A DNA stretch of 64,000 bases, from contig CM067358.1 of the NCBI GenBank assembly GCA_034190875.2, positions 46,025,799-46,089,798 of the forward strand. The letters are read 5' to 3'. Origin of the DNA: Urechis unicinctus (lineage: Eukaryota; Annelida; Polychaeta; Xenopneusta; Urechidae). A program made the translations under genes and the position numbers. Position 1 is the stretch's first letter, and every line of letters starts with the position of its first letter. This document shows, one piece after another, positions 24,194 through 39,824 of the stretch. The notes beneath the pieces are model-generated. The model searched no databases. It was given only the letters and a program-made list of their open reading frames with translations, and was not told the origin of the DNA.

Positions 24194-24199
24194 AACGCT
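24194..24199. repeat. Target site duplication AACGCT, left
   Basis: AACGCT immediately precedes the AGTAGTG terminus and recurs immediately after the CACTACT terminus at 39819-39824. A 6-bp duplication is the known hallmark of Polinton integration by the DDE integrase. Confidence 0.97.
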
Positions 24200-24442
24200 A
24201 GTAGTGATACACGTACCCCTTCACACCTTGTTTTGGAAATTGAATACTGTACGAATACTGTACGACGTGTATTGCGTAATATATGTTTCGCTGACGATTG
24301 CATGCGGATTCGGTGCGGTATTTTGCTGACCTAATTCTATTTTTGGAAAGTGATTTCACCATCTGTTCCGTTATTTTCCGCCCTTGAAATCTTTGCGCCC
24401 TTGGTGACCTCATGGAGGGGCGCTATTTTGGATGAGGTCATT
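24200..24442. repeat. Left terminal inverted repeat
   Basis: Pairs with 39612-39818 in inverted orientation. The outer 30 or so bases match exactly and the inner 90 or so bases (from GTGATTTCACCATCTG to GGATGAGGTCATT) also match. The middle differs: the left arm carries a tandem GAATACTGTAC and a longer ATTGCATGCGGATTCGG segment, making it 36 bp longer. Confidence 0.95.
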
Positions 24443-24465
24443 CTATTTTTGGAAAGTGATTTCAC
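24335..24465. repeat. 25-bp direct repeat at the inner edge of the left TIR
   Basis: TTCTATTTTTGGAAAGTGAT plus TTCAC occurs exactly at 24335-24359 and 24441-24465, spaced 106 bp. One copy lies inside the inverted repeat and one straddles its inner edge. The right end has only one diverged counterpart near 39695-39720. Confidence 0.85.
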
Positions 24466-24529
24466 AATTTTCGTCGGATATGTCGTCATAGTTTGCTGAG
24501 CTAAGCTAAGTGATGGGATAGAGGGTGTG

Positions 24530-24568
24530 TATAAAACGGGAGAGTGTCTCAGTCCTGCGTTCAGTTAT
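24530..24568 (+). promoter_or_regulatory. Core promoter: TATA box and TCAGT initiator
   Basis: TATAAAA at 24530-24536 and TCAGTT at 24561-24566. The initiator A is 33 bases from the TATA start and 10 bases before the ATG at 24573. Confidence 0.65.
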
Positions 24569-24572
24569 AATC

Positions 24573-25361
24573 ATGGCTGGGAAACGGATGAGCGACGCAG
24601 ATTTGTTAAAAGCGGTAGAACAAATCGAAATGGAGGAAGTGAAACCGCTATACACACGATACTTTGCACAGTATTCGATAGTGGTTTGGAATAAAGATGT
24701 AGTGTTTTTGAAAAACAATTTCAAGAAATGTCACATAGAGTTTGGGATGCACTGTGTATTGGACTGTGGTTACGAAATAGCTGCTGTCACAGAAACAATG
24801 AAACAGTTAGAAGCGGGAGAGGAGAGTCGTGTCGAGGTCTCTATTGGTGCAGACGTGACGATGAGTGTTCGATACCCGATCCCTATGGTGGTGATAAAGA
24901 AGGGTCAGGTGACAATGGAAATGGACAGTTACTCGTGGTATATGTTTGTAGAAGCGTGGGAGGAGTTGAAACAGCTCTACGGAGCCCACGTGATGAGAGC
25001 GAAATTAATGGAGGAATATCTGATGGTGGTATACACAGACACGCTTGTCGAATTAATCGAAGCTCTAATACCAGAAAAATGCCATGGCTGTCAGATCGAC
25101 CACCCGAGTCAGCGACAGCATAATCTTTGTTTGATGGCCGAACCTGAAGAACAAGTTCGGATGTGTATGACGGATGCTCTCGAGCGTGTTGACGAACACT
25201 ATGTATCAAGTTTATGGGAATTAAGTATAGGTTTAATTGACCCCTGCCCCTCGTGGATGGAACGTAGCAAATGGTTGTGTGTGGACTATAGGAAATATTG
25301 GTTGGAGTCGGTGAAATCAGATATTGAAATACGTGTAATTAACAGATTGTGTAATAAATGA
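24573..25361 (+). CDS. Conserved Polinton early protein with Cys/His cluster (262 aa)
   Basis: Function unknown. I chose the ATG at 24573 (context ATCATGG) because the longer frame begins at a GTG that overlaps the TATA box. The frame is clean. The C-terminal half has a Cys/His cluster that could bind zinc: CHGC at residues 170-173 followed by HPSQ at 177-180, H183 and C186. A VDEHYVSSLW segment follows near residue 210. A second gene in the element (26285-27081) is a clear paralogue by the shared D-S-x-x-W and VDEH regions. The stop TGA is preceded directly by AATAAA, so the transcript probably ends close to the stop. I believe this Cys/His pattern recurs in other animal Polintons, but that needs a search. 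The position next to the terminus with its own promoter suggests early expression. Confidence 0.8.
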   Translation: MAGKRMSDADLLKAVEQIEMEEVKPLYTRYFAQYSIVVWNKDVVFLKNNFKKCHIEFGMHCVLDCGYEIAAVTETMKQLEAGEESRVEVSIGADVTMSVRYPIPMVVIKKGQVTMEMDSYSWYMFVEAWEELKQLYGAHVMRAKLMEEYLMVVYTDTLVELIEALIPEKCHGCQIDHPSQRQHNLCLMAEPEEQVRMCMTDALERVDEHYVSSLWELSIGLIDPCPSWMERSKWLCVDYRKYWLESVKSDIEIRVINRLCNK

Positions 25362-25414
25362 GTGAAAATACAGGCCTGTGTTTGTTTCTTTTAATTATGA
25401 TTTGGAATGTATGT

Positions 25415-25447
25415 TATAAAGAGTTCAAATTTGGTGGGTGGTCATTT
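25415..25447 (+). promoter_or_regulatory. Putative TATA promoter for the 77-aa gene
   Basis: TATAAAG at 25415-25421 with a TCATTT initiator-like site at 25442-25447, 29 bases downstream. The initiator match is weaker than at the other promoters in the element. Confidence 0.4.
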
Positions 25448-25478
25448 ATGGCTAAGATAGTCAGAGAGTAACATCAAC

Positions 25479-25712
25479 ATGACGGATGCGTATAGCAGGT
25501 GGTCTGTTTTAAAAGACAAGTTACAGATGCATGCACAACTAACTCGAGAACTGAGAGACAATAAGATCTATAGACAAATTAGTATAAATCAACAGCGCTT
25601 GATGGAGTATGGTTACGATTTTGATACGGCTCTTAGTAAAGCGATCGAAGCTAGAGAGTGTTTAATGGATCGTCAGTTAACTGCGTTCGTGTCTGAAGAT
25701 GAGGTGGATTAA
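25479..25712 (+). CDS. Small hydrophilic protein, unknown (77 aa)
   Basis: Starts at ATG 25479 and ends in an acidic SEDEVD tail. It is rich in Arg, Lys, Gln and Glu and probably mostly helical. No domain recognised and no membrane segment. It sits between the Cys/His protein and the zinc-finger gene and has a possible TATA box 64 bases upstream, so it is probably a separate early transcription unit. Odd feature: 27 bases of its coding sequence (25570-25596) recur exactly in the last intron of the polymerase gene at 34873-34899, written in the same direction on the plus strand, so antisense to the polymerase transcript. Confidence 0.6.
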   Translation: MTDAYSRWSVLKDKLQMHAQLTRELRDNKIYRQISINQQRLMEYGYDFDTALSKAIEARECLMDRQLTAFVSEDEVD

Positions 25713-25718
25713 AGTAAT

Positions 25719-25754
25719 TATAAATATCGTTTAACAACAAGTTCACTGTCAGTA
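25719..25754 (+). promoter_or_regulatory. Core promoter: TATAAAT and TCAGTA initiator
   Basis: TATAAAT at 25719-25725 and TCAGTA at 25749-25754. The initiator A is 32 bases from the TATA start and the ATG is at 25780. The TATA begins only 7 bases after the preceding stop codon. Confidence 0.65.
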
Positions 25755-25779
25755 AAGGTTAAATCTTTAAAGCGACGAC

Positions 25780-26028
25780 ATGGAAACTTGTGTAGAATGT
25801 GACGAATGTCAGAGAGTTGCTGAGACCCAACAACCATATAGACCCAAGACACCTGCTCAGGGTAAACACAGACCCCTGAGGTTAAGGCGATGTCCTCTGT
25901 GTCAATGTGGGTTTGTTACCAAGGCGCTTTTGACCCAACACTTGAAATATCACTGTAATTATAAGCTCTACATTCACAATCGAAAATTAAGAAAACAACA
26001 GGCACAACAAAGCAGAGGAAGGTTGTGA
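25780..26028 (+). CDS. Single C2H2 zinc-finger protein (82 aa)
   Basis: Begins at ATG 25780. A classical C-x2-C-x12-H-x3-H finger spans Cys38, Cys41, His54 and His58, with Phe45 and Leu51 at hydrophobic-core positions. A second, unpaired cysteine cluster (C4, C7, C10) lies at the N-terminus, and both linker and tail are strongly basic. A nucleic-acid-binding or regulatory role is likely from the family; what it binds is unknown. It has its own TATA/initiator. E-box-bearing tandem repeats lie just downstream, before the next gene, which invites the guess (inference only) that a factor of the element or host acts there. Confidence 0.75.
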   Translation: METCVECDECQRVAETQQPYRPKTPAQGKHRPLRLRRCPLCQCGFVTKALLTQHLKYHCNYKLYIHNRKLRKQQAQQSRGRL

Positions 26029-26112
26029 CGTAATCGGAAAGCTTAACTTCCACGCTCGAAGAACCCCACAACCTGGTGTGCGTGTGCGTGTGTGCGTGAT
26101 TTACCGGATCTG

Positions 26113-26233
26113 AAATTAATTCGTCACGTGATCACGAAAAACCGCTGACATCAGCTAAATTAATTCGTCACGTGATCACGAACAACTGCTGACATCAGCT
26201 AAATTAATTCGTCACGTGATCCCTGACATCACC
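26113..26233. promoter_or_regulatory. 44-bp tandem repeats with CACGTG E-boxes
   Basis: Two full units (26113-26156, 26157-26200) and a partial third (26201-26233) of a sequence starting AAATTAATTCGTCACGTGAT and including TGACATCAGC. Each unit has one palindromic CACGTG (26125, 26169, 26213), spaced exactly 44 bp. They lie directly upstream of the promoter at 26244, fitting an enhancer or upstream activating array. Confidence 0.7.
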
Positions 26234-26243
26234 TCGATCAGGG

Positions 26244-26282
26244 GATAAATAAGTGAACACGAACAGATTTTTGTTTCATTCA
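26244..26282 (+). promoter_or_regulatory. GATAAAT box and TCATTC initiator
   Basis: GATAAAT at 26244-26250, TCATTC at 26277-26282, ATG at 26285. The same non-canonical GATAAAT box with correct spacing is found upstream of the polymerase gene. Confidence 0.5.
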
Positions 26283-26284
26283 GG

Positions 26285-27081
26285 ATGGCTGAGGAGAACA
26301 GCGAGGAGTGTGATTACATTGACGGACCGTTGTATACCAGTCGTCGTAGTGGTCGCTTTCAAATCACCCAGTGGTGTAGTAACCCAGAGACCCCAATGAT
26401 TTACACATTCGCGATCGATGGAGCGGACATCAAATAAAATTACCCTCAAATGCCTTTCTCAGAAGCGGGACGGCTCTTACATCACTCACCTTATCGTTGA
26501 TTGACGCGGAAGCTGGTCAATCGGACGTTGATACGGAAGAAACCATTTGTGACGATGTAATTGGTCGAGTGAAAGCCCCAGTCCCCTATATTGAAATTAC
26601 CCGTGAAAGCGTGACCATGTGCTTTGATAGTTTCAATTGGTGGCTGCTCATAAAAGCTTACCAAGACCTATCAGCACGCCCACAAAAGATGGATGACCAA
26701 GGAACGTCGCCTGATGGGTGGGATATGATAATTAGCCTTTACAGTGGTTTGATGAAGCCATTGTTATCTGACATAGCTCAAGAACCATGCGTCGTGTGTG
26801 GAACGGGCGTATGTCAAGCCGAGAACCAACAAAAGATGTATTCACATTGCGTTGGAAGAGCCTTGGATTAGGTGGACGAACATCACGTCACTTTATTATG
26901 GCGCTTGTTGTGTGAGCAACACAATTCGACTGAACTGTGTCTTTGGCTCTCTAGAGAGTATCGACGTACCATGTTAGGTTTTTGTGTGACCACCGAACAC
27001 TGGTCTAAAGTCTTAATGGGGGAACCTTATGACTGTAAATATAATAAAATTATTAGACGCATGAATATATATGATTGGTGA
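26285..27081 (+). pseudogene. Broken tandem paralogue of the 262-aa Cys/His protein
   Basis: Starts at ATG 26285 with MAEENSEECD. The first frame closes at TAA 26435, similarity moves through another frame to about 26496, then continues in a third frame to TAG 26869. Beyond that stop, in the same frame, VDEHHVTLLWRLL matches VDEHYVSSLWELS of the gene at 24573. Other shared points are PLYT near the N-terminus, VTM-x-x-D-S-x-x-W in the middle and a C-x2-C pair (CVVC). The HPSQ part of the Cys/His cluster is missing, so even an unbroken version would differ from its sister. Both frame changes can be read as single-base changes in short runs (AAA at 26432, TT near 26499); the TAG cannot. AATAAA follows at 27085-27090. 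Its promoter and upstream E-box array are intact, so it may still be transcribed. Confidence 0.75.
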
Positions 27082-27161
27082 TTGAATAAAAAGTGATGAT
27101 ATACTTTAATCGAATTTCTTTTTGAGTTCTACTTATCACGACACTATTTACCTATCCTATC

Positions 27162-27198
27162 TATAAAAAGAGTGGGGAACTGTGAATGATAACTCAGT
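27162..27198 (+). promoter_or_regulatory. Core promoter of the packaging ATPase gene
   Basis: TATAAAA at 27162-27168 and TCAGT at 27194-27198. The initiator A is 34 bases from the TATA start and 9 bases before ATG 27205. Confidence 0.7.
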
Positions 27199-27204
27199 AT
27201 AAGA

Positions 27205-27806
27205 ATGGATCGAGCCTTAAAACACCCCTTTAGTTGCGTGATAGCTGGTCCGAGCGGCTTTGGAAAAACTTACTTTGTGAGTGAGTTAATCAAAGGTAGT
27301 CACATTGAGCCACCACCCGACCGAATCGTGTGGTGTTTCGGAGAGTGGCAAACCATGTACACTCAACTACCGCACGTGGAATTTGTAGAGGGATTGAATT
27401 TTGAGACAGATCCTCAACAAAGAACCTTGTTGATCATCGATGATTTGATGGAAGAAACTGACGAACGCGTCACTCGCCTATTCACCAAAGGGAGTCACCA
27501 TGGCAATCTTAGCGTGTTGTATTTAGTACAAAATTTATTCGGAAAGAATAAAGAACATCGAACAATCAGTTTGAACGCTCATTATTTAGTGGTATTTAAG
27601 AACCCTCGGGACGCTTCACAAATCATGCATTTAGCCAAACAAATGTGTACCCGCGAAACATCAAGTATGTACAAGAAGCCTTTTCGGATGCTACTTCGCA
27701 ACCTCACGGTTATTTGTTTATCGATTTGAAACAGGCAACACCAGATCACTTACGGCTACGAACTGACATACTACGACCCAATCAAGTTGTATACCTACAG
27801 AAATAA
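27205..27806 (+). CDS. ATP: Packaging ATPase, FtsK/HerA-A32 type (one frame change)
   Basis: By family, this P-loop ATPase powers DNA loading into the capsid. Walker A GPSGFGKT is at residues 15-22. Walker B, a hydrophobic strand ending in Asp79-Asp80, follows at about 75-82, and then a VQNLFGK segment typical of the family. The continuous frame stops at 27729, but from about 27663 the neighbouring frame carries the family-like C-terminus (PHGYLF, then LRLRTD) to TAA 27804-27806. The break lies at TCAAG 27661-27665 and is a single-base change. AATAAA (27802-27807) overlaps the downstream stop, which supports 27806 as the true gene end. ATG 27205 is favoured by the TATA/initiator just upstream. 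Length is about 200 residues, normal for Polintons. Confidence 0.93.
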
Positions 27807-27855
27807 ATACCGTCGATCATCGGACGACCGCCATTCTTATCGTTAGACATAGATC

Positions 27856-28188
27856 ATGGCAGAGCATCTCAGAAAACACGCTGATACATTACGAGTGATG
27901 GCTAAAGCCAAACCCCCTGTCAATAGGGCTTTGATTCACACGGCTGACAAAGAATTGATAAATTGTCTATGTGAATGTGCACTCAATGTTTTAAAAGGAA
28001 ACGTATCCTTGACTTCAGTTCAGAAGCGTAAATTAGCCCGATACAAACAAGGTCTGCGCGCTTTGATCTCACCTAAAACTAACGTCAAGAAAAAGAAAAG
28101 AGTATTACAAACCGATGGTTTTCTCCCGGCGTTATTAGGACCTATTTTAGGTATCGCTGGTCCGTTGTTAGGCAAACTATTGGGCTAA
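27856..28188 (+). CDS. Small basic Polinton protein with hydrophobic C-terminus (110 aa)
   Basis: Starts at ATG 27856 (context ATCATGG). A helical N-terminal two-thirds with a Cys pair (CLCEC, residues 38-42) and a basic run (KKKKR near 76-81) is followed by a glycine/leucine-rich hydrophobic tail (LPALLGPILGIAGPLLGKLL) that looks like an amphipathic or membrane-active helix. Small proteins of this build are conserved among animal Polintons and adintoviruses and have been compared with adenovirus minor core or membrane-lytic proteins; that role is inferred. It is the first of nine closely packed plus-strand genes; the next ATG is 4 bases after its stop. No TATA box was seen just upstream, but CCATTCTTATCGTTAG at 27830-27845 could be a splice acceptor. 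Confidence 0.75.
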   Translation: MAEHLRKHADTLRVMAKAKPPVNRALIHTADKELINCLCECALNVLKGNVSLTSVQKRKLARYKQGLRALISPKTNVKKKKRVLQTDGFLPALLGPILGIAGPLLGKLLG

Positions 28189-28192
28189 AATT

Positions 28193-28827
28193 ATGGCTAA
28201 GAAAATGATGTTGGTTGATCCCCGGGTTCTGTCAAGTGGGCGTTACGATCAAGCTCCCACTGTCGACGTGTTATCCAACTTGGATGCGGAGATGAGGGAT
28301 GTCCTGAATCGTAGTGATTTATCGGAGGAGTCTAAAGTAGAATCTTATAACCAAATTTTAACAAAAAACACCGCGAGTATTACCGCCAGCACAGAACCCC
28401 GACACCTCACACAGCCTTAGCTAATACCCCCGCCCCACACACCCAAACAAGAAGATGTGTCTATTGCGGAAGTTGTAGAAACCATCCCTGATAAATTTCA
28501 GAAAAAAGGGCGTTTGCTATTAGAACGCCTTCGAAAAAAAACCCAGACGTGGGCTGGAATGAACGAGGGGAATTAATGATTAAAGGACAAGCCGTTAGTG
28601 GGACTAACGTGGCGGATTTGGTTAACGATGTGTTGAGACGGCGTAAACACTTTGAACCAGAGGGTTGGAAAAGATTTGCTGAAGCGTTGCGAGACTCCAA
28701 CATTCCTCAAGATTTAGTAGGTCACCCCGATCAATGGAACTATATCCGACAGGGGGCGATGCAAATAGATAAAAGACCTGGTGAGGAGGAGCCTGTAACA
28801 CAAAATTGGATGTCATGGAGAAGTTAA
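28193..28827 (+). pseudogene. Conserved Polinton protein upstream of integrase, interrupted
   Basis: A protein of about 210 residues, split as written. The first segment (28193-28420, starting MAKKMMLVDPRVL) ends at an in-frame TAG (28418-28420). The same frame then continues with a Pro-rich linker and EDVSIAEVVETIP to the A run at 28534-28541, where the frame changes by one base. The last segment, PDVGWNERGEL onward, runs to TAA 28825. I recognise the overall pattern (short motif VDPR, then WN-x-R-GE, then RRKHF-P-GW) as a conserved Polinton gene of unknown function that normally sits just before the integrase; a structural or DNA-associated role is possible. Its end overlaps the integrase start by 13 bases. 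The TAG lies in the least conserved linker. Confidence 0.75.
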
Positions 28828-29861
28828 GTGTGTGTTTCGACCCTGAGGCACCGGCCGCGTATGGAGGGGTGCAGCCATTGGTTAGAGCTACGAAACTCAA
28901 AACAAAGGCAGTCAGACAATGGTTGGGCGAGCAAGATGCCTATACATTACATAAACCGATCCGTCGTCGATTTCGAAGACGACGCGTCATAGTCGGGGGA
29001 ATTGACCATCAATGGCAAGCCGATTTAGTGGACATAGCTCGCTTAGCCAAACAGAACCAAGACATGAAATTTCTCTTGACCTGTATCGATGTACTCTCGA
29101 AATATGCGTGGGTGATACCACTAAAAAATAAAACGGGTGACAGTTTGATTCGAGCCTTTGAGAGTATATTAAAACAAGGGCGGAAGCCCCTGTGTTTACA
29201 CACTGATAAGGGTGGAGAATTTATCAACCGTAAATTTCAGACATTTCTTAAGCAGCAGGGGATTCGTTTTTTTACCACCCACAACGAAGAAACCAAAGCT
29301 AGCATAGTCGAGCGGTTTAATCGTACGTTAAAAACTAAAATGTGGCGTTATTTTACCAAACACAACACCAGTGTTTATCTACCGGTTCTGGCTTCGCTGG
29401 TGAAAGGATACAACGTCAGTTATCACCGCAGCATTAAGCGCCCCCCGATATCAGTCTCGGTGCTTAATCAAGAAGACACGTGGATGACATTATACGGGGA
29501 ACGCTCTGATGAGGTTAAACGACCACGGTATGATATCGGGGATCGTGTCCGCATCAGTCAAGCACGGGGTAAATTTAAAAAGGGTTACACTTCCAATTGG
29601 AGCGAGGAGTTGTTTCGGGTGGAGAACGTTCACTTAGGCTCCCCCAATGTGTATACGATAAAGGATGATAATGACGAAGTGTTAGAGGGAACATTTTACG
29701 CGGAAGAATTACAGAAAGTGAATGACAAAGCATGGTATAGGGTTGAAAAAATTATCAAAGAACGTAAACGGAAAGGACAAAAACAATACTTTGTCAAGTG
29801 GTTTGGCTACCCTGCCAGTTTTAATAGTTGGGTCAGTGGTGTGGAGCTGTATAAAAACTGA
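28815..29861 (+). CDS. INT: Retroviral-type DDE integrase with chromodomain
   Basis: Catalyses integration of the element; the flanking 6-bp AACGCT duplication is its footprint. Clean frame of 348 aa from ATG 28815. The longer frame begins at TTG 28806, unlikely in a eukaryote. Catalytic core: Asp70 in WQADLVD, Asp131 in LHTDKGGEF and Glu166 in IVERFNRTLK, with 34 residues between the second and third. An SH3-like C-terminal domain (YDIGDRVRIS) follows. Residues about 307-345 form a chromodomain (YRVEKII, then YFVKWFGYP, then SWV), which in related elements can bind methylated histone H3 and steer integration to heterochromatin. No classical HHCC zinc finger is evident; the N-terminus has only one Cys in its first 20 residues. 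The gene overlaps the preceding one by 13 bases. It is one of the few genes here without a frame break. Confidence 0.97.
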   Translation: MEKLSVCFDPEAPAAYGGVQPLVRATKLKTKAVRQWLGEQDAYTLHKPIRRRFRRRRVIVGGIDHQWQADLVDIARLAKQNQDMKFLLTCIDVLSKYAWVIPLKNKTGDSLIRAFESILKQGRKPLCLHTDKGGEFINRKFQTFLKQQGIRFFTTHNEETKASIVERFNRTLKTKMWRYFTKHNTSVYLPVLASLVKGYNVSYHRSIKRPPISVSVLNQEDTWMTLYGERSDEVKRPRYDIGDRVRISQARGKFKKGYTSNWSEELFRVENVHLGSPNVYTIKDDNDEVLEGTFYAEELQKVNDKAWYRVEKIIKERKRKGQKQYFVKWFGYPASFNSWVSGVELYKN

Positions 29862-29886
29862 GATTTGGAACAGAAGCGTCATTAGG

Positions 29887-30114
29887 ATGGAAGATCAGAG
29901 AAGTGATCGGGTGTGGACCATATTTGGTCGGGAAATTCCGAAAGCCGAAATCGTGTTTTTCACACAAATCCTCATTCTATATACCGTAATCATCGTCAGC
30001 ATCTACAATCTAACGGCGGGTAAAGGAGATAGTAATTTGTGGACTGCTCTGTTAAGCAGTAGCTTAGGGTACATTCTTCCCAACCCCACTTTGAAACATA
30101 AAGCGACGTCATGA
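29887..30114 (+). CDS. Small conserved Polinton membrane protein (75 aa)
   Basis: I start at ATG 29887 (MEDQRSDRVW); the longer frame upstream overlaps the chromodomain codons and has no support. A charged N-terminus with IFGREIPKAE leads into a single strong membrane segment (residues about 22-40, IVFFTQILILYTVIIVSIY). A conserved-looking LWTALLSSSLGYILPNP stretch follows that may dip into the membrane. Proteins with this signature occur beside the integrase or capsid genes in other animal Polintons; function unknown, perhaps a virion or replication-membrane component (inference). Its TGA overlaps the next ATG as ATGA (30111-30114). Confidence 0.75.
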   Translation: MEDQRSDRVWTIFGREIPKAEIVFFTQILILYTVIIVSIYNLTAGKGDSNLWTALLSSSLGYILPNPTLKHKATS

Positions 30115-30896
30115 GTTTCTTTCTGACCCTGCCTTCCAACAGTTCAATGAATTATCACCCCAACAACACGCTGACACGTTACTTTACTCAATTGCCTAAA
30201 CCCATACAATTAAAAGGTAATTGGGAGGTGGGATTAGCAGAAATTCAGTACCCTGTTTCCTGGTACAACATCGGGGACGATGTCGGTTTTGTCATAGTGG
30301 ATGAGCGAGCTGGATACCATACGATAGACAGACACTTGGAAGGGGATCCTTTGGTCGAGTCCTTGGTCGTTCGCCTGACCCCCGGTTCCTACAGTGCTGA
30401 ACAATTGATAGACAGGATCAATATGCACATCCGCAAATCGCATCTCAGAGGCGTGGTTCGATTTCAATTCAATTCCCACTCACAGACCGTGAATGTAAAA
30501 ATAACTGATCCCAAACTTCAAGTGGTCATGACCGAAGGTCTTCGTCAAATATTGAGGTGTGAGGAATGTCTTTCGCTCTACGATTCTCAAACTGATTACA
30601 AGCCTAATGTATTTCGAGGGTTGTACGCACTGTACGTTTATTGTAGTATAATTGAATCACAAGTGGTCGGTGACACGATGGCTCCCTTGCTACGCACAGT
30701 TCCTGTGGACTACGACCGGGTGCACAAAATGGTGACCCAGACATACGAACAGATATTTTATTACCCTGTGGGCACCAAAACCTTTTGTACCATAGAAATT
30801 GATATAAGAGACGACACGGGTCAGTCCGTGGCATTCGAAGACGGACATGTGATGGTGACTTTACATTTCCGTGAAACCAAGAAGAACTTAATTTGA
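30111..30896 (+). CDS. Penton-like minor capsid protein candidate, paralogue 1 (261 aa)
   Basis: Intact frame from ATG 30111. Begins MSFFLTLPSNSSMNY, then LPKPIQLKGNWEVGLAEIQYP, and ends with an FYYPVGTKTF region followed by IEIDIRDDTG and VMVTLHF. Size, beta-rich pattern and position just before the pVI-like and major capsid genes fit the single-jelly-roll penton (minor capsid) protein of Polintons. The fold is inferred, not seen. A paralogue follows immediately (30916-31725). The first 75 or so bases of the two genes are almost identical in DNA, although the rest has diverged widely. An alternative is a fibre or other late structural protein. Confidence 0.75.
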   Translation: MSFFLTLPSNSSMNYHPNNTLTRYFTQLPKPIQLKGNWEVGLAEIQYPVSWYNIGDDVGFVIVDERAGYHTIDRHLEGDPLVESLVVRLTPGSYSAEQLIDRINMHIRKSHLRGVVRFQFNSHSQTVNVKITDPKLQVVMTEGLRQILRCEECLSLYDSQTDYKPNVFRGLYALYVYCSIIESQVVGDTMAPLLRTVPVDYDRVHKMVTQTYEQIFYYPVGTKTFCTIEIDIRDDTGQSVAFEDGHVMVTLHFRETKKNLI

Positions 30897-30915
30897 GTCT
30901 CATGGCATCACCATC

Positions 30916-31725
30916 ATGAGTTTCTTTCTGACCCTACCTTCCAACAGTTCAATGAATTATCACCCCAACAACACGTTGACACGTTACTTAACTCGACTCC
31001 CCAAAGCTGTACAGTTGGAAGGGGCTTGGGAAGTGGGATTAGCGGAAATTCAGTACCCTTACACGTGGTACAATGTTACTGAGGACGAGGGGTTGGTCGT
31101 CATGGATCGTGTGGCTGGTGCGCTCAATCTCCCCCCGGATATCTGTTGCAGTGAGCGATATGACATTGTGAGTGAATTTGCAGAGGCCCGTCCCAAATAT
31201 TTTCACATTACCCCTGGTTTTTATACGACCGGATCGTTGATAGAAGCCTTTGCAGCCAAGTTAAAGGAGCAAAATGAGGAGCGAGTGCGTCTCACCTACA
31301 ATCGAACACGACAGACAGCAACTATGACCCTAGACAATGAGTCAGTTGTAGTTTACATGGACGAGGGGTTGCGTCAAAGACTCGGTTTTGAAATGGGGAT
31401 TTTTGAGAACAGTCAAGTCGGTCAGCACATTGTTGACCCTGATCGAGGCTTGTACGGACTCTATGTCTATTGTAATCTCATCGAAGCTCAGGTGGTAGGA
31501 GACACTGTGGTCCCCCTTCTGCGTATTATTCCAATCGATCACAATCGTCGCGGGCAGTTGATCAACTCCACGTATAAAAAGATATTTTATTACCCGATAG
31601 CCACCAAGACTTTTTCTACTATAGAAATCGATATAAGAGATGACACGGGTCGACCCATTCCATTCGAATCTGGTAAAGTGACAGTGACGTTACATTTCCG
31701 TAAAATCAAGAAAGCTATATTTTGA
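30916..31725 (+). CDS. Penton-like minor capsid protein candidate, paralogue 2 (269 aa)
   Basis: Intact frame from ATG 30916, 19 bases after paralogue 1. Shares the same N-terminus (SFFLTLPSNSSMNYHPNN), EVGLAEIQYP, the YGLYVYCNLIE-x-QVVGDT segment, FYYP-x-x-TKTF-x-TIEIDIRDDTG and a terminal VTLHFR. Central loops (residues about 60-120) differ strongly in sequence and length from paralogue 1. Two copies side by side could provide two different vertex proteins or be a simple tandem duplication that is diverging. The stop TGA is 5 bases before the next ATG. Confidence 0.75.
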   Translation: MSFFLTLPSNSSMNYHPNNTLTRYLTRLPKAVQLEGAWEVGLAEIQYPYTWYNVTEDEGLVVMDRVAGALNLPPDICCSERYDIVSEFAEARPKYFHITPGFYTTGSLIEAFAAKLKEQNEERVRLTYNRTRQTATMTLDNESVVVYMDEGLRQRLGFEMGIFENSQVGQHIVDPDRGLYGLYVYCNLIEAQVVGDTVVPLLRIIPIDHNRRGQLINSTYKKIFYYPIATKTFSTIEIDIRDDTGRPIPFESGKVTVTLHFRKIKKAIF

Positions 31726-31730
31726 AAACC

Positions 31731-32136
31731 ATGGCTGATATTTACACGCCGTATTACCTGAACCAAGCGGGTGGAGGGCTCCCCGTGTTTTCCGGTGCCA
31801 GGAGTCAACGCGGACACGGCCTTGGTAATGTGGTTGGTGGTCTGGCTAAAATGGTGTTACCGCTGGTTCGAAAAGTTTTACCTGTCGTTAAAAAAACACG
31901 CCTTGAAAACAGGAGTGAGGGTGGTTGGAGATTTGTTGGGAGGGAAGTCTCTGAAACAGTCGGCTAAGAAACGATTGTTACAAACCGGAGAGGAAGTGTT
32001 CGATCAAATAGTTCCACCCAAACAACCGCGTCCCCGACCACCATTCTCTATAAAACGACTCGCACGAGGTAGGAACAGTAGTTTACGCGGTCGTCGTGGA
32101 ACAACTCGGAGGTTGCCAAAAGATATTTTCGGTTAG
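31731..32136 (+). CDS. Glycine-rich pVI/pX-like minor virion protein (frame change in A run)
   Basis: Starts at ATG 31731 (MADIYTPYYLNQAGGG); the TTG at 31722 is unlikely. A Gly-rich stretch (GHGLGNVVGGLAKMV) leads into an amphipathic LPLVRKVLPVVKK helix. At the A run 31890-31896 the frame changes by one base; the neighbouring frame carries the rest, ending in a strongly basic tail (SLRGRRGTTRRLPKDIFG) and TAG 32134. Start, glycine-rich helix, basic tail and position immediately before the major capsid gene fit the Polinton counterpart of adenovirus pVI or pX, thought to bind DNA and/or disturb membranes during entry; this is inferred. As written, the continuous frame stops at 31967. Confidence 0.75.
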
Positions 32137-32139: not shown

Positions 32140-33456
32140 ATGGCACTGGTACACCCCCAATCTTGTCCCTGTGTCAAAAGTGAATTAGACCTATTTTCGA
32201 TTCCCCCAACTCAAAGTAGTGTCGATCATGGATCGTGGATCGAATTCCATCCGGTAGCTGCTTTAGGTTCGGGTCCAGTCGAAATTCTACATCAGTGGGT
32301 CGGGTGATGATTATATCGATCTGAACGACACGTATTTACAAGTGAATGCCAAAGTGGTGAAAAAGGATGGGGCGGTTTTGGAGGCTGACAGTGCTGTAGC
32401 ACCCGTTAACCTCTGGTTACACTCACTCTTTTCCCAAGTCGATGTCTCTCTCTCTCAAAAAAACTTGTGTCCTCCTCGACAAACACATACCCGTATCGCG
32501 CTTATATGGAAACGCTATTGAGCTATGGTTCGGAAGCCAAAAACTCTCAGTTAACAGCTAGTTTATGGTACAAAGACACCCCAAAACACATGGACGCCGT
32601 GGGTGGTACTAACAACAAGGGGATGATAGCTAGAAAGAAACGAGCTCAAGAGAGTCGCATTGTGGATATGATGGGCAAATTACATTTAGATTTATTTAGT
32701 CAAGAACGCTATTTATTAAACGGCGTAGATTTGAAGTTGCGATTAGTACGCAGCGGTGACAGCTTTGCCCTTATGGCCAATCCTGCAGAAGGATTTGCCC
32801 CTAAAATAGTTCTGCAATCAGTGACCTTATTCGTACGCAAAATAAAGTTGAACCCCACCGTGCAACTAGCTCACATTAAGGCTTTAGAACGAAGCCCAGC
32901 TAAATACCCCATAAGACGCATAGAAACCAAAGTGTTTTCTGCATCTCAAGGAGCTATGACGTTCAATCAAGAAAATTTATTTTTGGGTCAGTTACCCAAA
33001 CGAATTGTAGTTGGAAGTGTTGATAATAGGGCGTTCAACGGTGATTACACTCAGAACCCCTTCAACTTTAAGCATAACGACCTCACATTTTTAGCTATGT
33101 ACGTTGACGGACAACAAATGCCCGCAAAACCATTACAGCCCGATTTTAATCACCATATATACACCCGCAGTTATGCTAATTTATTCATTAGCACTGGACA
33201 ACTCTATCAAGACGAAGGCAATGCCATAAGTTGGAGTGATTATCCCAATGGCTATACACTATTCGCTTTTGATCTGACCCCCGACCTGGGTGATAGCGGC
33301 ACTCATTTTAATTTGTTGAAACAAGGAAACGTGCGCTTGGAAATGCGTTTTGGTACGGCCCTAGAACGTACCATTAATGTCATTGTGTATGCCGAATTTG
33401 AAAATATGATTCAAATTGACCGAAACCGTAACGTTCTGTTTGATTACGCTGCCTAA
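32140..33456 (+). CDS. MCP: Major capsid protein, double jelly-roll type (two frame changes)
   Basis: Forms the icosahedral shell by family inference. About 438 residues from ATG 32140, 3 bases after the preceding stop. The N-terminal part (LDLFSIPPTQSSV) is in one frame to about 32287; the middle (SGSGDDYIDL, then LWLHSLFSQVDVSL) is shifted by one base to the A run at 32457-32463. The rest (SSSTNTYPYRAYMETLLSYG onward) returns to the first frame and runs clean to TAA 33454, including YPIRRIETKVF, LGQLPKRIVVG, FNFKHNDLTFL and a DRNRNVLFDY end. The two shifts compensate. The family is widespread in animal genomes, often annotated as F54H12.2-like, and the size suits a double jelly-roll hexon. 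The protease follows after 2 bases. Confidence 0.88.
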
Positions 33457-33458
33457 CA

Positions 33459-33901
33459 ATGGATACCAGGCAATTACACGAGCTCTTACAAAAAGACGCT
33501 TTCACTCGAGCTACTGTGCGCGGAGTGTTTGCGCGGAATAAATTACCCCGCCATGTCAACTACCCCAGCGGTTTCGTTTGTAATACGGATCCAGCTTCCA
33601 AAAAAGGCAAACACTGGATTGCTATTTTCATTGATCATAATGAACGAGGCGAATATTTTGATTCTTACGGACTACCTCCTATTCATAACGTATTTGTGAA
33701 GTTCTTGACCAAGCATTGTGTGAACTGGACTTATAATACAAAGCCATTACAAGACTTTAATTCCAATACTTGTGGACTTTATTGTTTGTATTATTTAAAG
33801 AGACGATGTCGTGGATAAGTTTGAACCAATTGCTGGCTGTATTTACCGACGATTATTCAACCAACGATAAGCTGGTGACATGTTTAATTCAAGGCAAATA
33901 A
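33459..33901 (+). CDS. PRO: Adenain-type cysteine protease (C-terminal frame change)
   Basis: Matures capsid proteins in the family. Starts at ATG 33459, 2 bases after the capsid stop. Expected catalytic residues are visible: His52 in GKHWIAIF, Asp68 in YFDSYG, Gln98 in PLQ and Cys105 in NTCGLYCLYYL. The continuous frame ends at 33818 (RRCRG, TAA 33816). The adjoining frame continues with ISLNQLLAVF to TAA 33899-33901, so one base appears to be lost near GGATAAG (33811-33817). All catalytic residues lie before the break. AATAAA at 33897-33902 overlaps the downstream stop and probably ends the whole plus-strand cluster. About 147 residues is short compared with adenain but usual for Polintons. 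Confidence 0.93.
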
Positions 33902-34063
33902 ACAACGCGTGTTGAAAATGTACGACGTTTTTATTCTTAGTTTCTCTCACATCCTTTAAACATCAATTTCTTACAGAGCACACATCCATCGATTACATAA
34001 CACCTTCACTTCAATTTATTACATATTAACACATATCAATTTCTTAAATAGCATATTAATGTA
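33897..34063. terminator. Convergent 3' ends with polyadenylation signals on both strands
   Basis: The plus strand has AATAAA at 33897-33902. The minus strand has AATAAA (TTTATT at 34015-34020), about 45 bases past the polymerase stop. The stretch between the convergent genes is AT-rich and holds nothing else. Confidence 0.7.
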
Positions 34064-37000
34064 TCACACATCTAAAGGTTTAGTGCTTACACCGTCTGCA
34101 CTCACAATTCTCTTGGGGTAAAAATAACTTAATCCATCTCTAATTTGCGTATACGAATACATTGTGTTATTGTTAATGCGAAAGCCACGGTTCACACCAC
34201 GACCTGATTTTTGTTCTCTCAGCACATTCATATATTTCTCCTTGTTCAGGTCGTTTTGACGTTTATTGAGTCCTTTACACGAGGCTTTATCCGTAGTTCC
34301 ATAACAGTAATAGGTTTTACTGCACAGTCCGATAAAACCATCTCCACTCCACTCCTCTTTAAATAAACCCCGGGGTACGTTTATCATATTTTTGGCGGGT
34401 CACACAGCACGGTTGAGGTACCCACGGGGTTCCGTTCGTTTTACACTGTATAAAGTCTTTGTTGTGATCATCACACGCTACAGCTGGCAACCACTGAGGG
34501 TATTCTCTGTAAAATTGTTCTTTCATGTTGGGTTTGATGACATCTGTTAGATGACTACTACTAAGAGCGATATAACTACTATCAGTGTCCATCTGTACAT
34601 AGGCAAAATCACATCTCGCGACATACTTATCAATAAAATCATAGTAAAATTCCAGCATCCTTAATTTGGCGTATTGATAAACAAAATAGCCTATTTGTTG
34701 GGGTAAGTCGAGATCAATGGTGGTTTTGGCCATGTCGAATTCAAACAGGTTGGGGGTTAATTCGTTCAAGGCTCTGAATCTTTTGTCGTTGATCAATTTC
34801 TTACCCTCTCGGTAGTCGGCGTATTTGACATCACGGTGTTTAGTTTTATCCGTGACGCATTTACCTACAAACATAGACAAATTAGTATAAATCAACAGCA
34901 CTTGACGGGTATTTTTTTTTAATTTTTTTTTTAAATCATAAATTTGAAATAAATTTGAAAGTAACAATTAAATCAATATATTTTACAATAATACATTTTA
35001 GTATATTTACCATAGGCCGAATTTCCAAGTAGCTTAAAAGTTTCGGCTATAACGGTCTGACTCGGGTCGACATCACCCCCACGTCTACACACAAACAAGA
35101 ACATTATCAAAAATAAAATTCAACGCTTGAAAGAGTATATCACATATAACTATAAGAGTATATCATATATATATTCGTACATACCTGGCGTCTGATACGG
35201 TCTCGGCAAATCGTTTGAAACAGGCTGTGGGTTCATACTCCAGTGTTTGGTATATCTTTGTGATCACCAGGCCATGTTCCAAGTACCATTTCAGTAGTGG
35301 GCTAGCAAGCAATATTTTCACACCTTTGTAGCTCCCTATCAACGTCCGCCATTCCGTCTATTTGAAAATAAATAATGAAAATCGTTATGATATCATAGTG
35401 ATCGCAACAAAATACATTATGATCCCACGCCCCTTGTCACCTTGTGTACTTACTTTCATAATGTCCCGTTGTTCAGCATAGTCTCGCATAAAGGGTCCGA
35501 TTTCATCTCGGGTCAGTTCAGTGTTTTTGAATATAGGGGTCATTTCACTGAAATAGTCTTTAAGGGTTTCTGGTACGTGTATATCTACTTCAGCCATTCC
35601 AAAAAAGGTTCCGTCACGTATATTGGCTATGAGCTGTTTTTCCGTCAAACCGGTTCGTAGTGGTTGCGGTCGACTGTACGTGAACGCTTTGATCTGAGGG
35701 TCTGTTTTTCGTTTTTTTTTCGTCCATTCACATTCCCACACAGCTACGACATCATAACCTAATCCTCTCAAATACTGGGTATTTCTTTCTGTTTCGGTAT
35801 ATAAATCACTCATTAGTTTTCCACTGATGGGGCTATGGGTCAATTTCAGACACGGACAGCCATGCCATACACATCCGTGAAACTGATATACTGTTTGCGT
35901 TTCTTTACACCACCCGTCTACGGGTAATCGCCGGGCGCCAATTCTTTTTTTTCCCCTCTCTGTTTAGACGATGTTGTATTTGATTTTGTGAGCTGTGTGC
36001 TATCCAAGCCAACCATTCATCCGCTATTCCGCCTTTTCGGGTCTGAATTGGTTTAAACTCAGGCGCGTGACGTCGGGTCGGAAAGTTGGCTGGCATGGGT
36101 TTGAGCCAATGCCCATAGATAAAGCGCATTCGCATCATAACCTACGATTCCTTCACACAACTTCGATTCATTTCCGTTCTGTTCACGCCTGATGTAAGTT
36201 TTTCCTTTTTCGTGGTAACGATGAAAGATGATTGAGGGTCCGCCCACTATTCCATTTTTAATCAACCAATAGATGTCGTTGTTCTTTTCGTCAGGTAAGG
36301 TAAAATAATCTTCCAAGTCTTGAAATAAATATCGCATGGTTAATCCGGGCACTGATATTCCATCCTTCAACATATCTATACCTCTCTCACTGTAAAAACG
36401 ACTCTGTTTCTCTATGGCTTCCAGAAACGGTTCGACATCTAAATTGTTGTAATATATCAAAAATCTTTAAAAAATATGACTGCTTCCCACGCTTCTTGAC
36501 ATTCAGCGTATTGGTCTGCTGTAATGTTTTCTTGTTTTAACGCACTGTAAAAAGCTGCATGGGGTGGTAATTCTGTATTTTTCAAACGATCGAGTGTCAC
36601 CCATTCATACGGGAAATACCCTTTTTCTGTTCGCATTGAATGGCTCGTAGGTATTTGTCGTATGTATATCCAGGTGCAATAAAGTTGGTGATATCCAAAA
36701 ACCGTACATGCTCCGTTTTCAATGCACATGAATGAGTTATTTCGTTTGATGGTATACTTGATCGATGAATGTTCTTGCAGGTAAGTTGTCAACGGTATTT
36801 TCACAAGGTTGAGGTCATAATTCGATGAGTTGAATCCGACTAACGGTAATACATGTAAATAGTTGTCGAATTTTTTCTGTAATTTCTGCAATGGATGTTC
36901 TCCCTTGACGACCGGGTCCAGTTGATACGCTTCATCGATTTTCTCTTGTAACTGGGTTAGGGTAGCTTCGTATTGAGCAAGCATCAGTAGATAGGCGGCG

Positions 37001-38286
37001 TTTGATATCTCCTCTATATAAATCATCATCCTGTCAATCAATGTTTGTGCGTTTCCTTCCGTTACAAAGCATTTTGGTTCTGTATAATCAGGTACATTGC
37101 TGCATACACTCACTGATAACGGTACGTGTTTTTGGTCCCAGGTGACTTTGGGTGAATTGACGGGTAGGTTGTCTTCTCCAAAATAACTTTCAAAATCATA
37201 GGTGGCTCTGTAAGGGTAAATACCGTCTTCTATTTCGATTCCTTCGTCCCGTAACGCTTCAAAGATAGTGGGTGGTAGATGAAAAACACCGCCTGGGTAC
37301 TTGTATTTCGTTTCCACAGTACATATGTTTTCGTGGCGATGTAGTTTTTTTTCTCACTTTTCCACAGCTTCTGACAGGTACCACAAATATATGATTTGCT
37401 ATAAAGGTCAAAGTTTTTGATGTAACTAAAGTGATTTTCGTACAGGTTCAATTTCAAGGTCGCGGCGAATTTTGTGCGCGTTCGCTTGACCAAAGTAGCT
37501 ACCTGAAACACATATAACAAATCGATCACATCTCATATTTCCATTTCGATATCAAATGATTACATCGTTTATGTTGTTACTTCTGTTTAATCACTACAAG
37601 ACACACTTACTTGATTCTCGTCTAGCGTATACACGGTGATATTCACTTTGAATTGTTTTGCTAGTCTTTCGACGTCTTCAAGGGGTACACCTGCAAATGT
37701 TTTTTTCTTTTGTTTTGGGTAAGCAGTCTTTAACAATGTTTTTTGCTGCATTCTCTAGACTCGTGATCTTCACTCCTCTATGTAAAGCCAAAAAAGCACA
37801 ATCGGTCTTGATACGGTTTACCCGTTTGTTGACTTTGCTCTAACAAGTTGATGGCTCTGTTTGTTTTCAGGTGTTCCGGCATAACGGGTGGTGGGTAGCC
37901 GATCACGTGATCTTCAATTGGGTTCACAAAGATGGTCAAATTAGTCACTTCCTCTACACTCCATTTCGAATCCGGTCGTTGGTTCTGGGGTAGGTTAATG
38001 TCTCTTTGTGTTATTTCACGCATAGCCCTCTCAAAATCATCGGCATTCCGTACGACTAGAGGGGTTGGTAGCATTCGATGGTTGTTGACGGACGAGTGAA
38101 ATACCGCAATTCCTTTTTCTTTGTGACGTAATAAGAATCCATAACTCCCGTTGATTTTAAAGGCTGAATCGCATTCCTCAAATATATTGGGAAACTTCTT
38201 TCAGCATAAATTATTCGAGCAATGAAATCACTTTCCTTTAAAAAATAGCCTTCCAAAGCGCGTATGAGTACGAATAGCTCTTTCAT
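34064..38286 (-). CDS. POLB: Family B DNA polymerase, protein-primed type, five exons
   Basis: Replicates the element. Exons on the minus strand: 38286-37611, 37502-35454, 35357-35185, 35084-35011, 34864-34064, separated by four introns with GTAAGT/GTATGT/GTAAAT donors and TTTCAG/AAATAG/TGTAG acceptors. I start at ATG 38286, 35 bases after a TCAGTC initiator. Landmarks in order: CFLALHRG-like N-terminal motif split by a frame change (about 37780-37800), Cys2-His2-type knuckle CGTCQKLW, exonuclease I DFESYFG (near 37190), exonuclease II GFNSSNYDLNL (near 36825), motif A GYDANALYL (near 36130), FHGCVWHGCPC, motif B KLLGNSAYG (across the third intron-flanked exon, 35011-35040) and motif C MDTDSSY (near 34585). 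As written the frame is broken at least eight times, each a single-base change in a run: 38114, 37790, 37700, 37345, 36459, 36097, 35945 and 34365. All catalytic motifs remain readable. Confidence 0.93.
34865..35010 (-). other. POLB intron 4 (146 bp)
   Basis: Donor TATG|GTAAATATAC and acceptor CTATGTTTGTAG|GTAAATGC on the minus strand join motif B's YG directly to KCVTDKTKHRD in frame. A TACTAAT branch-point-like sequence lies about 20 bases from the acceptor. That stretch (34873-34899 on the plus strand) is identical to coding bases 25570-25596 of the 77-aa gene. Confidence 0.88.
35085..35184 (-). other. POLB intron 3 (100 bp)
   Basis: Donor CGCCAG|GTATGTACG and acceptor TTTGTGTGTAG|ACGTGG on the minus strand. 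Splicing joins SDA-R to RGGDVDPSQ and keeps the frame into motif B. Confidence 0.9.
35358..35453 (-). other. POLB intron 2 (96 bp)
   Basis: Donor ATGAAA|GTAAGTACAC and acceptor TTTTCAAATAG|ACGGAATGG on the minus strand. Splicing joins DIMK to TEWRTLIG in frame. Confidence 0.92.
37503..37610 (-). other. POLB intron 1 (108 bp)
   Basis: Donor GAATCAA|GTAAGTGTGT and acceptor TATATGTGTTTCAG|GTAGCT on the minus strand. Splicing joins YTLDENQ to VATLVKRT in frame. Confidence 0.92.
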
Positions 38287-38320
38287 AGCTGAGGTGAATG
38301 CGAAATCGAGAATGCTCGAC

Positions 38321-38354
38321 TGACAGGGGGGCAACTCACAATGACTAATTTATC
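38321..38354 (-). promoter_or_regulatory. POLB core promoter: GATAAAT box and TCAGTC initiator
   Basis: On the minus strand GATAAAT (38354-38348) lies 32 bases before the initiator A at 38321 within TCAGTC. The first ATG is at 38286. The spacing matches the plus-strand promoters of the element. Confidence 0.55.
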
Positions 38355-38548
38355 AAATCGTTTGACATGAGTCGTTATTTAATTAAGATAGATGCGCATC
38401 GTGAATTCAACGATCGGTAAATCACATTACCAGCTTGTGTAATTATACCACAGATTCATCGAGTCCGATTAATAACACAAACACCAGTATAACATTTTAT
38501 ATATTTATATTTATTTAATTTTAAAAATATTTAAATTTTCTTCTATCT

Positions 38549-38921
38549 TCATCCTACAAACAAAACAAATTATTTTTTTGTTTTAATCTCTAAGAATAAA
38601 ATAAAATTCCAGAGAATCTTAAACATTTGCGGTACTCACTGTTTTTTAATAAATGTTTGGGTTCCCTGCAAACAAAGAAATATAGACTTATAACAGATAC
38701 AAAAGTCAACGAATCTATACTATGATATAGCGTGTTTTAAGCGAATACTCACAGTACGGGATAGCCTGTTACGAGAGACCCGCCCTTGTTATAACTTTTA
38801 CCCACTTGGTGGGGGCTGAAATATATCCAGGATACGCCCCTGTCACGCCAACTATATTTTCGAATCGCTTATAAAATACGTTTTTAAATCCAAAATATTC
38901 CACAATATCTGGTTTTGCCAT
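38549..38921 (-). CDS. Candidate small spliced gene, unknown function
   Basis: Three exons on the minus strand: 38921-38753, 38665-38640 and 38553 onward. Donors are ACT|GTGAGTATTC and ACA|GTGAGTACC; acceptors are CTTTGTTTGCAG|GGAA and TTGTTTGTAG|GATG. A TATAAAAA box lies at 39001-38994, about 80 bases before the ATG (ATGGCAAAACC), and AATAAA follows the last exon. The first exon reads MAKPDIVEYFGF and ends GAYPGYISAP; to stay open into exon 2 the frame must change once, at the run of five G (plus strand 38811-38815), the same kind of break seen elsewhere here. Protein would be about 65 residues, no domain recognised. It could also be a 5' leader exon set of POLB, but POLB seems to have its own promoter. 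Confidence 0.4.
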
Positions 38922-39611
38922 TGTAATGTTCACTAATTCCGGATAGTGGAATTATTGAATCTTGATTTGGTAGGATCCGTAGAAACAAAATGATTTTTAT
39001 AAATATGCTCCATGCTTGTTATTTTGAAATATTCCAGAGGAAAACTATTTTGAAGTAAAGTTACCATCCGCTATTTGTAACCCATAACTCCACCCCCATT
39101 TTGAGAAATATCCAATGGTCAACTTTTAATCCATCTGTCGTTATATTCTCAATGAGAGTTACAACACACTTAAAGACATCTGTCATTTTTTCCCTCCTAT
39201 GAAAGACTCATATGCTAGTAAGATTCATTCACGTGAAAACTTCAATCGACCAACATATCTAACGAAAATTGACTTTTAATACCCATTTACAATCTCCTCA
39301 ATAAAACTATCGAAAATGACCTCACCCAAATACCGCCCATTCATCACACCAGGTCGAAAGTCAACAACCTTCCTAAGGACATAGCCCCAAATGAACTCAC
39401 TCGAATACCGTACATCGCGTTACCCTCCTAAGGTCACCTCAAGGTCACCACATGTCATGGGATAAAAGGAAATATACCAACAAATCACCTCGTAAACACC
39501 GTCTTCATATCTGAACAGATGGTGAATACTCCACTAACATTAACACTATCCTTCACTTCTCTTTCAACACCATTACCGCTAATTGAACTCCTTCTCAATA
39601 AAACTCCCAAA
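38922..39611. repeat. Right subterminal region with degenerate TIR-like repeats
   Basis: No gene. Contains diverged relatives of the inner TIR motif TGACCTCATCCAAAATAGCG: TGACCTCACCCAAATACCGC near 39320 and TGAACTCACTCGAATACCG near 39392, each with similar leading sequence (CTCAATAAAACT at 39297 and 39594). AAGGTCACCTCAAGGTCACC near 39430 adds further GGTCA half-sites. Such subterminal arrays often bind transposition proteins; that is inference. Confidence 0.6.
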
Positions 39612-39818
39612 AATGACCTCATCCAAAATAGCGCCCCTCCATGAGGTCACCAAGGGCGCAAAGATTTCAAGGGCGGAAAATAACGGAACAGATGGTGAAA
39701 TCACTTTCTGAAAGGTCAGATACCGCACCGTGCAATCAGCGAAACATATATTACCATAACGTTATTCGTACAGTATCAATTTCCAAACAAGGTGTGAAGG
39801 GGTACGTGTATCACTACT
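39612..39818. repeat. Right terminal inverted repeat
   Basis: Inverted counterpart of 24200-24442, ending GGGGTACGTGTATCACTACT. It is 36 bp shorter than the left arm through indels in its middle third; both the outer end and the inner 90 bases match exactly. Confidence 0.95.
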
Positions 39819-39824
39819 AACGCT
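39819..39824. repeat. Target site duplication AACGCT, right
   Basis: Exact copy of 24194-24199, directly after the terminal CACTACT. Confidence 0.97.

What the first reader, a model, noticed from the sequence alone, without database searches (positions are those of the whole stretch)
24194..39824. A Polinton with both ends and an exact 6-bp target duplication
AACGCT | AGTAGTGATACACG ... CGTGTATCACTACT | AACGCT is seen directly. Outer TIR ends are exact, which implies a fairly recent insertion into an older repeat block. The gene set is complete for integration, replication, capsid building and packaging.
Basis: partly seen in the sequence, partly recalled or inferred. Interest (0 to 1): 0.75.

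Follow-up and report, generated by a model that had tools for sequence, protein, structure and literature searches.

The report
Decayed Polinton with likely spliced polymerase
This is a virus-like jumping element of a well-known kind (a Polinton or Maverick), present from end to end but already broken in about half of its genes; its one mildly unusual trait is that its DNA-copying gene seems to carry introns.

Summary
A 15,619-bp element (24200-39818) has terminal inverted repeats (243 and 207 bp, ends AGTAGT...ACTACT) and is flanked by an exact 6-bp duplication, AACGCT. It is a Polinton/Maverick: DDE integrase with chromodomain, packaging ATPase, adenovirus-type protease, major capsid protein, penton (predicted fold matches the mavirus penton), and on the other strand polymerase pieces with a Vsr-like segment. 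Named animal relatives of the capsid protein are molluscs. "Complete gene set" holds for gene content only: by frame reading I count about 14 frame changes and 2 in-frame stops in seven genes, so this copy cannot work alone. A fairly recent insertion is plausible (3 substitutions in 207 aligned terminal-repeat positions). Insertion into the older repeat block is not shown; that homology ends about 690 bp to the left. Further features: two tandem penton genes (already reported in two adintoviruses) and four likely GT-AG introns in the polymerase, whereas intact vertebrate Mavericks are reported intronless. The host genome search did not complete, so host, copy number and empty site stay open. 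Verdict: new member of a known kind.

The parts
24194..24199 (.). Left copy of the 6-bp target site duplication AACGCT
24200..24442 (+). Left terminal inverted repeat, begins AGTAGT
24573..25361 (+). Left-end gene, 262 aa, open; TATAAA at 24530 upstream
   Evidence: 2 relatives among 1468 candidates
25479..25712 (+). Small ORF, 77 aa, function unknown
25780..26028 (+). Small ORF, 82 aa, one C2H2 zinc finger (below Pfam cut-off)
26296..26967 (+). Degenerate paralogue of the left-end gene (a frame change and an in-frame stop)
   Evidence: tblastn of P0121 and P0122, 22-25% identity; frames
27205..27729 (+). Packaging ATPase, frame broken near the C-terminus
   Evidence: Pox_A32 28.3 bits, cut-off 22.8; frames
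27856..28188 (+). Small conserved ORF, 110 aa, open
   Evidence: 48% identical counterpart in L001
28193..28827 (+). Conserved ORF, broken by a stop and a frame change
   Evidence: counterpart in L001; frames
28815..29861 (+). Integrase with C-terminal chromodomain, 348 aa, open
   Evidence: Pfam rve 47.9 bits and Chromo 42.2 bits; PDB integrases and HP1; D, D, E
29722..30114 (+). Small ORF with a hydrophobic stretch (by eye); start uncertain
   Evidence: counterparts in L001 and L002, 55-59% identity
30111..30896 (+). Penton gene A, 261 aa, open
   Evidence: 50% identical to B
30916..31725 (+). Penton gene B, 269 aa, open
   Evidence: model pLDDT 88.8; best PDB match mavirus penton
31731..32136 (+). 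Small gene between penton and major capsid protein, frame broken
   Evidence: counterparts in L001 and L002; frames
32140..33456 (+). Major capsid protein gene, frame broken twice
33459..33818 (+). Adenovirus-type cysteine protease, frame broken near the C-terminus
   Evidence: Peptidase_C5 21.3 bits, equal to the cut-off; 49% counterpart in L002
34064..38349 (-). Protein-primed type DNA polymerase region, in pieces: four putative introns and about seven frame changes; 5' limit uncertain
   Evidence: Vsr-like segment in 35388-35963
37503..37610 (-). Putative intron, 108 bp, GTAAGT...CAG
35358..35453 (-). Putative intron, 96 bp, GTAAGT...TAG
35085..35184 (-). Putative intron, 100 bp, GTATGT...TAG
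34865..35010 (-). Putative intron, 146 bp, GTAAAT...TAG
39612..39818 (-). Right terminal inverted repeat, ends ACTACT
39819..39824 (.). Right copy of the target site duplication AACGCT

Best explanation
A Polinton/Maverick (endogenous polintovirus, adintovirus-like, with a Vsr-like segment as in group I) that integrated whole and then decayed. Its chromodomain integrase joined the AG...CT ends to a staggered 6-bp cut in host DNA, leaving the AACGCT duplication (ends and duplication are shown; the enzyme's action is inferred). The life cycle inferred from family knowledge is protein-primed copying from the repeated AGT ends by its own polymerase, packaging by its ATPase into capsids of major capsid and penton proteins matured by its protease, and integration. 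This copy can no longer do that alone; the integrase, both pentons and the left-end gene stay open. The polymerase was probably expressed from a spliced nuclear transcript (likely, not shown).
For: Exact 6-bp duplication and TIRs; rve and chromodomain integrase; ATPase and protease Pfam matches; penton fold; major capsid relatives, 3468 of 4568 candidates at E up to 0.001, one of three relatives scanned matching the double jelly-roll domain PF21738; same gene order in the stretches held of L001 and L002; Vsr-like segment in the polymerase; end motif (AGT)2//(ACT)2 and 6-bp duplication as in published Mavericks (PMC8097293).
Against: No Pfam or NCBIfam polymerase model matched the polymerase pieces and no PDB polymerase matched the one carrying the recalled DTDS motif; only a weak PHROG polymerase match, E 0.064. 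Two of three major capsid relatives scanned match no Pfam family, and the model of the window's own capsid fragment was poor. The grouping of genes differs from vertebrate Mavericks. Other copies of the family were not seen because the genome search did not complete.
Confidence: 0.93

Rival explanations
1. An intact, potentially active element: most frame breaks are assembly indels, not mutations.
For: About 14 frame changes against only 2 in-frame stops; several breaks fall at A/T runs.
Against: In three pairs of duplicated flank blocks substitutions to gap runs are 183:28, 157:23 and 105:7, and 5 of 24 one-base gaps lie in runs of 4 or more, so the assembly does not look grossly indel-ridden; the 2 stops are substitutions.
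Confidence: 0.12
2. The four polymerase inserts are random insertions into a dead gene, not introns.
For: Gene predictors call insertions in fossil Mavericks introns, and intact vertebrate elements are intronless (PMC8097293). Other donor-like hexamers exist on the strand: 8 in all, 4 of them at the inserts. No reference polymerase or RNA was available.
Against: All four start with a good donor hexamer, end in AG, join pieces in compatible phase, hold in-frame stops or shift the frame, and are AT-rich (67-82% against 59%). Shuffles give a donor at all four with product 0.004 before asking for phase.
Confidence: 0.15
3. The host has kept some open genes (integrase, pentons or left-end gene) for its own use.
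For: These frames are open while seven others are broken.
Against: After a short drift some genes stay open by chance; no selection test was possible without other copies.
Confidence: 0.03

Closest known systems
Vertebrate Mavericks, group I (PMC8097293, sections 6, 7, 14 part 1 and passages; PMC10328495, passages)
   Same: 6-bp duplication, (AGT)2//(ACT)2 ends, size (15.6 kb against a mean of 16.9 kb), TIR size in the range 46-1,447 bp, integrase, ATPase, major and minor capsid proteins, protease, polymerase with Vsr-like insertion
   Different: Here ATPase and neighbours lie on the strand of the integrase and capsid genes and the polymerase stands alone on the other; two pentons; likely introns; broken frames
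Adintoviruses (PMC11071296, passages)
   Same: Integrase with C-terminal chromodomain; duplicate pentons are reported there in two (Adinto23690, 18043)
   Different: OTU-like domain of the polymerase and alpha/beta clade not tested here
L001 (contig in a Bathymodiolus symbiont assembly) and L002 (contig in a Breoghania assembly)
   Same: L001: ATPase, two small ORFs, integrase, hydrophobic ORF, penton, small gene, major capsid protein in this order; L002: hydrophobic ORF to protease, with polymerase pieces on the other strand
   Different: One penton each; left-end gene not found in either; both degraded; no protease hit in L001; L002 begins inside the hydrophobic ORF

Membership tests
Polinton/Maverick | 6-bp target site duplication | tested here: met
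   AACGCT on both sides
Polinton/Maverick | terminal inverted repeats with repeated end motif | tested here: met
   243 and 207 bp, AGTAGT//ACTACT; motif as in PMC8097293
Polinton/Maverick | retrovirus-type integrase | tested here: met
   Pfam rve 47.9 bits, cut-off 32.6
[quoted passage not shown]
   No Pfam or NCBIfam polymerase match; weak PHROG match; motifs recognised from recall; two pieces matched in L002 at the same relative place
Polinton/Maverick | packaging ATPase and adenovirus-type protease | tested here: met
   Pox_A32 28.3 bits (cut-off 22.8); Peptidase_C5 21.3 bits (cut-off 21.3)
Polinton/Maverick | double jelly-roll major capsid protein | tested here: met
   By homology only: 73% to P0123; relative P0140 matches PF21738, P0123 and P0138 match nothing; own model too poor
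Polinton/Maverick | single jelly-roll penton | tested here: met
   Model of gene B matches mavirus penton 6g41, E 1.3e-10, TM 0.49; viral models
Intact, potentially active Maverick | all core frames open and intronless | tested here: not met
   About 14 frame changes and 2 stops in seven genes; four likely introns
Group I Mavericks | Vsr-like insertion in the polymerase | tested here: met
   NCBIfam vsr E 5e-4, 20.3 bits, below its cut-off 97.85; PHROG endonuclease E 6.2e-7; PDB Vsr E 0.0032
Adintovirus | integrase with C-terminal chromodomain | tested here: met
   Pfam Chromo 42.2 bits, cut-off 25.1
Adintovirus | polymerase with N-terminal OTU-like domain | tested here: inconclusive
   N-terminal pieces gave no Pfam match; no fold was made

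The most novel reading that the evidence does not exclude
A Polinton lineage whose replicative polymerase, alone among its genes, carries several spliceosomal introns, so that polymerase production depends on nuclear splicing while the capsid genes stay intronless, together with a doubled penton gene whose first 27 or so codons are kept alike by conversion or constraint.
Probability: 0.45. Interest if true: 0.5.

Novelty: new member of a known kind. Interest (0 to 1): 0.3.

Why it matters
Polintons are held to link transposons with several groups of eukaryotic DNA viruses. A copy with both ends and target duplication gives clean boundaries for an invertebrate-type lineage with its own gene grouping. 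If the introns are real, they bear on where and how such elements make their polymerase, and warn that frame-based surveys can take a spliced polymerase for a fossil.

Tried and rejected
Rejected: a chance match at the ends (31 identical outer bases beside a 6-bp repeat). Not shown and so not adopted: insertion into the repeat block; the flanks, joined and apart, matched no empty paralogue in the window. Disregarded as below cut-off: AraA_central on the left-end protein and OB_HELZ2 on penton A, OmpA_like on the last polymerase piece.

Led nowhere: viral-contig scans with the integrase, the penton alignment, the capsid alignment and one polymerase piece found no relative. A degenerate motif pattern gave five loci, L003-L007, matched by none of 22 window pieces at E up to 0.01. 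Five polymerase exons taken one by one gave only chance-level hits in L001-L007 in the rows shown. The capsid model was too poor for a fold search. tRNA and Rfam scans of the window gave nothing. Kapitonov and Jurka 2006 was not looked up (known here as cited in PMC8097293); Jeong 2023 and Starrett 2021 are not held.

Full report
Observation. AACGCT stands at 24194-24199 and 39819-39824 and encloses a 15,619-bp element, 24200-39818. Its ends are inverted repeats, 24200-24442 (243 bp) against 39612-39818 (207 bp): 204 matches, 3 substitutions, 36 gap columns in 9 runs; the outer 31 bp are identical.

Gene content. The + strand carries a left-end gene (262 aa, open), two small ORFs, a degenerate paralogue of the left-end gene, a packaging ATPase (Pox_A32, 28.3 bits, cut-off 22.8), two conserved ORFs, an integrase with rve core (47.9 bits) and chromodomain (42.2 bits), a small hydrophobic ORF, two penton genes, a small gene, the major capsid protein and an adenovirus-type protease (21.3 bits, equal to the cut-off). 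The integrase has D, D and E, with 34 residues between the last two, and matches PDB integrases and HP1 chromodomains. The left-end protein has only 2 relatives at E up to 0.001 among 1468 candidates.

Capsid proteins. The 348-aa open part of the major capsid gene found 3468 proteins at E up to 0.001 among 4568 candidates; 120 are listed, the best 73% identical, and the named animal ones among them are from Littorina saxatilis, Mizuhopecten yessoensis and Pecten maximus; one is named Dehalococcoidia, probably a stray contig. Of three such relatives scanned with Pfam, P0140 matches the double jelly-roll domain PF21738, while P0123 and P0138 match nothing. The model of the window's own fragment was poor (pLDDT 60.9) and was not searched. 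Penton B found 447 proteins among 931 candidates. Its model (pLDDT 88.8) matches the mavirus penton best in the PDB, E 1.3e-10, TM 0.49, and among viral models unnamed algal-virus proteins, adomavirus LO5, a MELD virus penton and the mavirus minor capsid protein.

Tandem pentons. Genes A and B are 50% identical in protein. In the first 27 codons DNA identity is 95% and 10 of 11 four-fold sites agree; from codon 55 on it is 55% and 14 of 39. The 5' ends were either converted recently or are constrained as nucleotide sequence. L001 and L002 carry one penton each. Duplicate pentons are already reported in two adintoviruses (PMC11071296, passages).

Polymerase. Pieces of a polymerase lie on the - strand, 38349-34064. 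No Pfam or NCBIfam polymerase model matched them, no PDB polymerase matched the one piece with the recalled DTDS motif, and PHROGs gave one weak match, E 0.064. The call rests on recalled motifs, on place, on two pieces matched in L002 and on a Vsr-like segment: NCBIfam vsr E 5e-4 but below its cut-off, PHROG endonuclease E 6.2e-7, PDB Vsr E 0.0032. A Vsr-like insertion marks group I Mavericks (PMC10328495, passages).

Introns. Four inserts begin GTAAGT, GTAAGT, GTATGT or GTAAAT, end in AG, measure 108, 96, 100 and 146 bp, and are 67-82% AT against 59% in the remainder. The pieces on either side continue in compatible phase (by my reading). Shuffling the 61 bases around each donor gave a good donor in 1119, 438, 202 and 628 of 2000 shuffles (product 0.004, phase not asked). 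Against: donor-like windows are common, 72 of 413 on the polymerase strand, 77 of 919 on the + genes, 136 of 919 on their antisense, and of 8 strong donors on the polymerase strand 4 are at the inserts. No reference polymerase or RNA was at hand, so introns are likely, not shown. Intact vertebrate Mavericks are intronless, said to agree with Kapitonov and Jurka 2006, and in fossil copies insertions are called introns by gene predictors (PMC8097293: sections 6, 7, 14 part 1 and passages). Listings of searches for introns with Polintons and passages in five papers (PMC3671162, PMC12220804, PMC11071308, PMC8504770, PMC6035795) showed no spliceosomal introns in an animal Polinton polymerase, but key papers are not held; no priority is claimed.

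Decay and age. By three-frame reading I count about 14 frame changes (polymerase about 7, major capsid 2, one each in ATPase, protease, the gene between penton and capsid, one conserved ORF and the left-end paralogue) and 2 in-frame stops (conserved ORF, left-end paralogue), in seven genes. The ATPase and protease breaks are judged from recalled family endings. Three substitutions in 207 TIR positions would mean a few million years at a generic 2-5e-9 per site per year (recalled). In three flank duplications substitutions to gap runs are 183:28, 157:23 and 105:7, with 5 of 24 one-base gaps in runs of 4 or more, so the assembly does not look grossly error-prone; still, several element breaks fall at A/T runs and read mapping is needed.

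Flanks. Old duplicated blocks pair 1-23.5 kb with 49.9-62.7 kb, and the first holds a younger tandem copy of about 7.6 kb. Homology ends near 23,508, about 690 bp left of the junction, and the flanks match no empty paralogue in the window. The element lies beside, not demonstrably in, the repeat block.

Mechanism. Integrase-mediated staggered insertion of a protein-primed linear genome is the established reading for this family; repeated end motifs fit the jumping-back start of such copying (PMC8097293, section 14). The two transcription units converge, with AATAAA at 33897 (+) and at 33935 and 34020 (-) between the protease and the polymerase. In vertebrate Mavericks ATPase and PZ share the polymerase's strand; here the ATPase does not, and L001 agrees in having it upstream of the integrase on the same strand.

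Limits. The host genome search did not complete (18 calls), so host, copy number, sister copies and empty site are unknown; a mollusc or other marine invertebrate host is inferred from capsid relatives. Mavericks are reported across all mollusc genomes analysed in PMC10294476 (passage), which makes the find ordinary.

Noticed in passing
window 4462-11743 and 12001-19383; 1-23508 and 49941-62720: A tandem copy of about 7.6 kb (3.8-6.3% substitutions over aligned bases in the two blocks compared) inside an older, roughly 75-85% identical large duplication that lies on both sides of the element; content not identified.
   Followed up: partly
window 24573-25361 and 26296-26967: Left-end gene with two relatives in the protein collection and a degenerate paralogue beside it, 22-25% identical to those relatives; a Cys/His-rich stretch (CHGCQIDHPSQRQH) is shared with the relatives.
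   Followed up: partly
window 30111-30191 and 30916-30996: First 27 codons of the two penton genes are 95% identical in DNA although the rest has diverged.
   Followed up: partly
L001 (JACCHT010000004.1), L002 (NZ_JASJAV010000039.1), P0220: Polinton genes sit in contigs or proteins labelled as bacterial (symbiont and marine MAGs, Dehalococcoidia), probably eukaryotic contamination of the bins.
   Followed up: partly
window 26113-26221: A 44-bp unit repeated 2.5 times at 96% between the zinc-finger ORF and the left-end paralogue.
   Followed up: no
window 20141-20566 and 60299-60570: Long AT-rich dinucleotide tracts at matching places of the two duplicated blocks, self-complementary.
   Followed up: no
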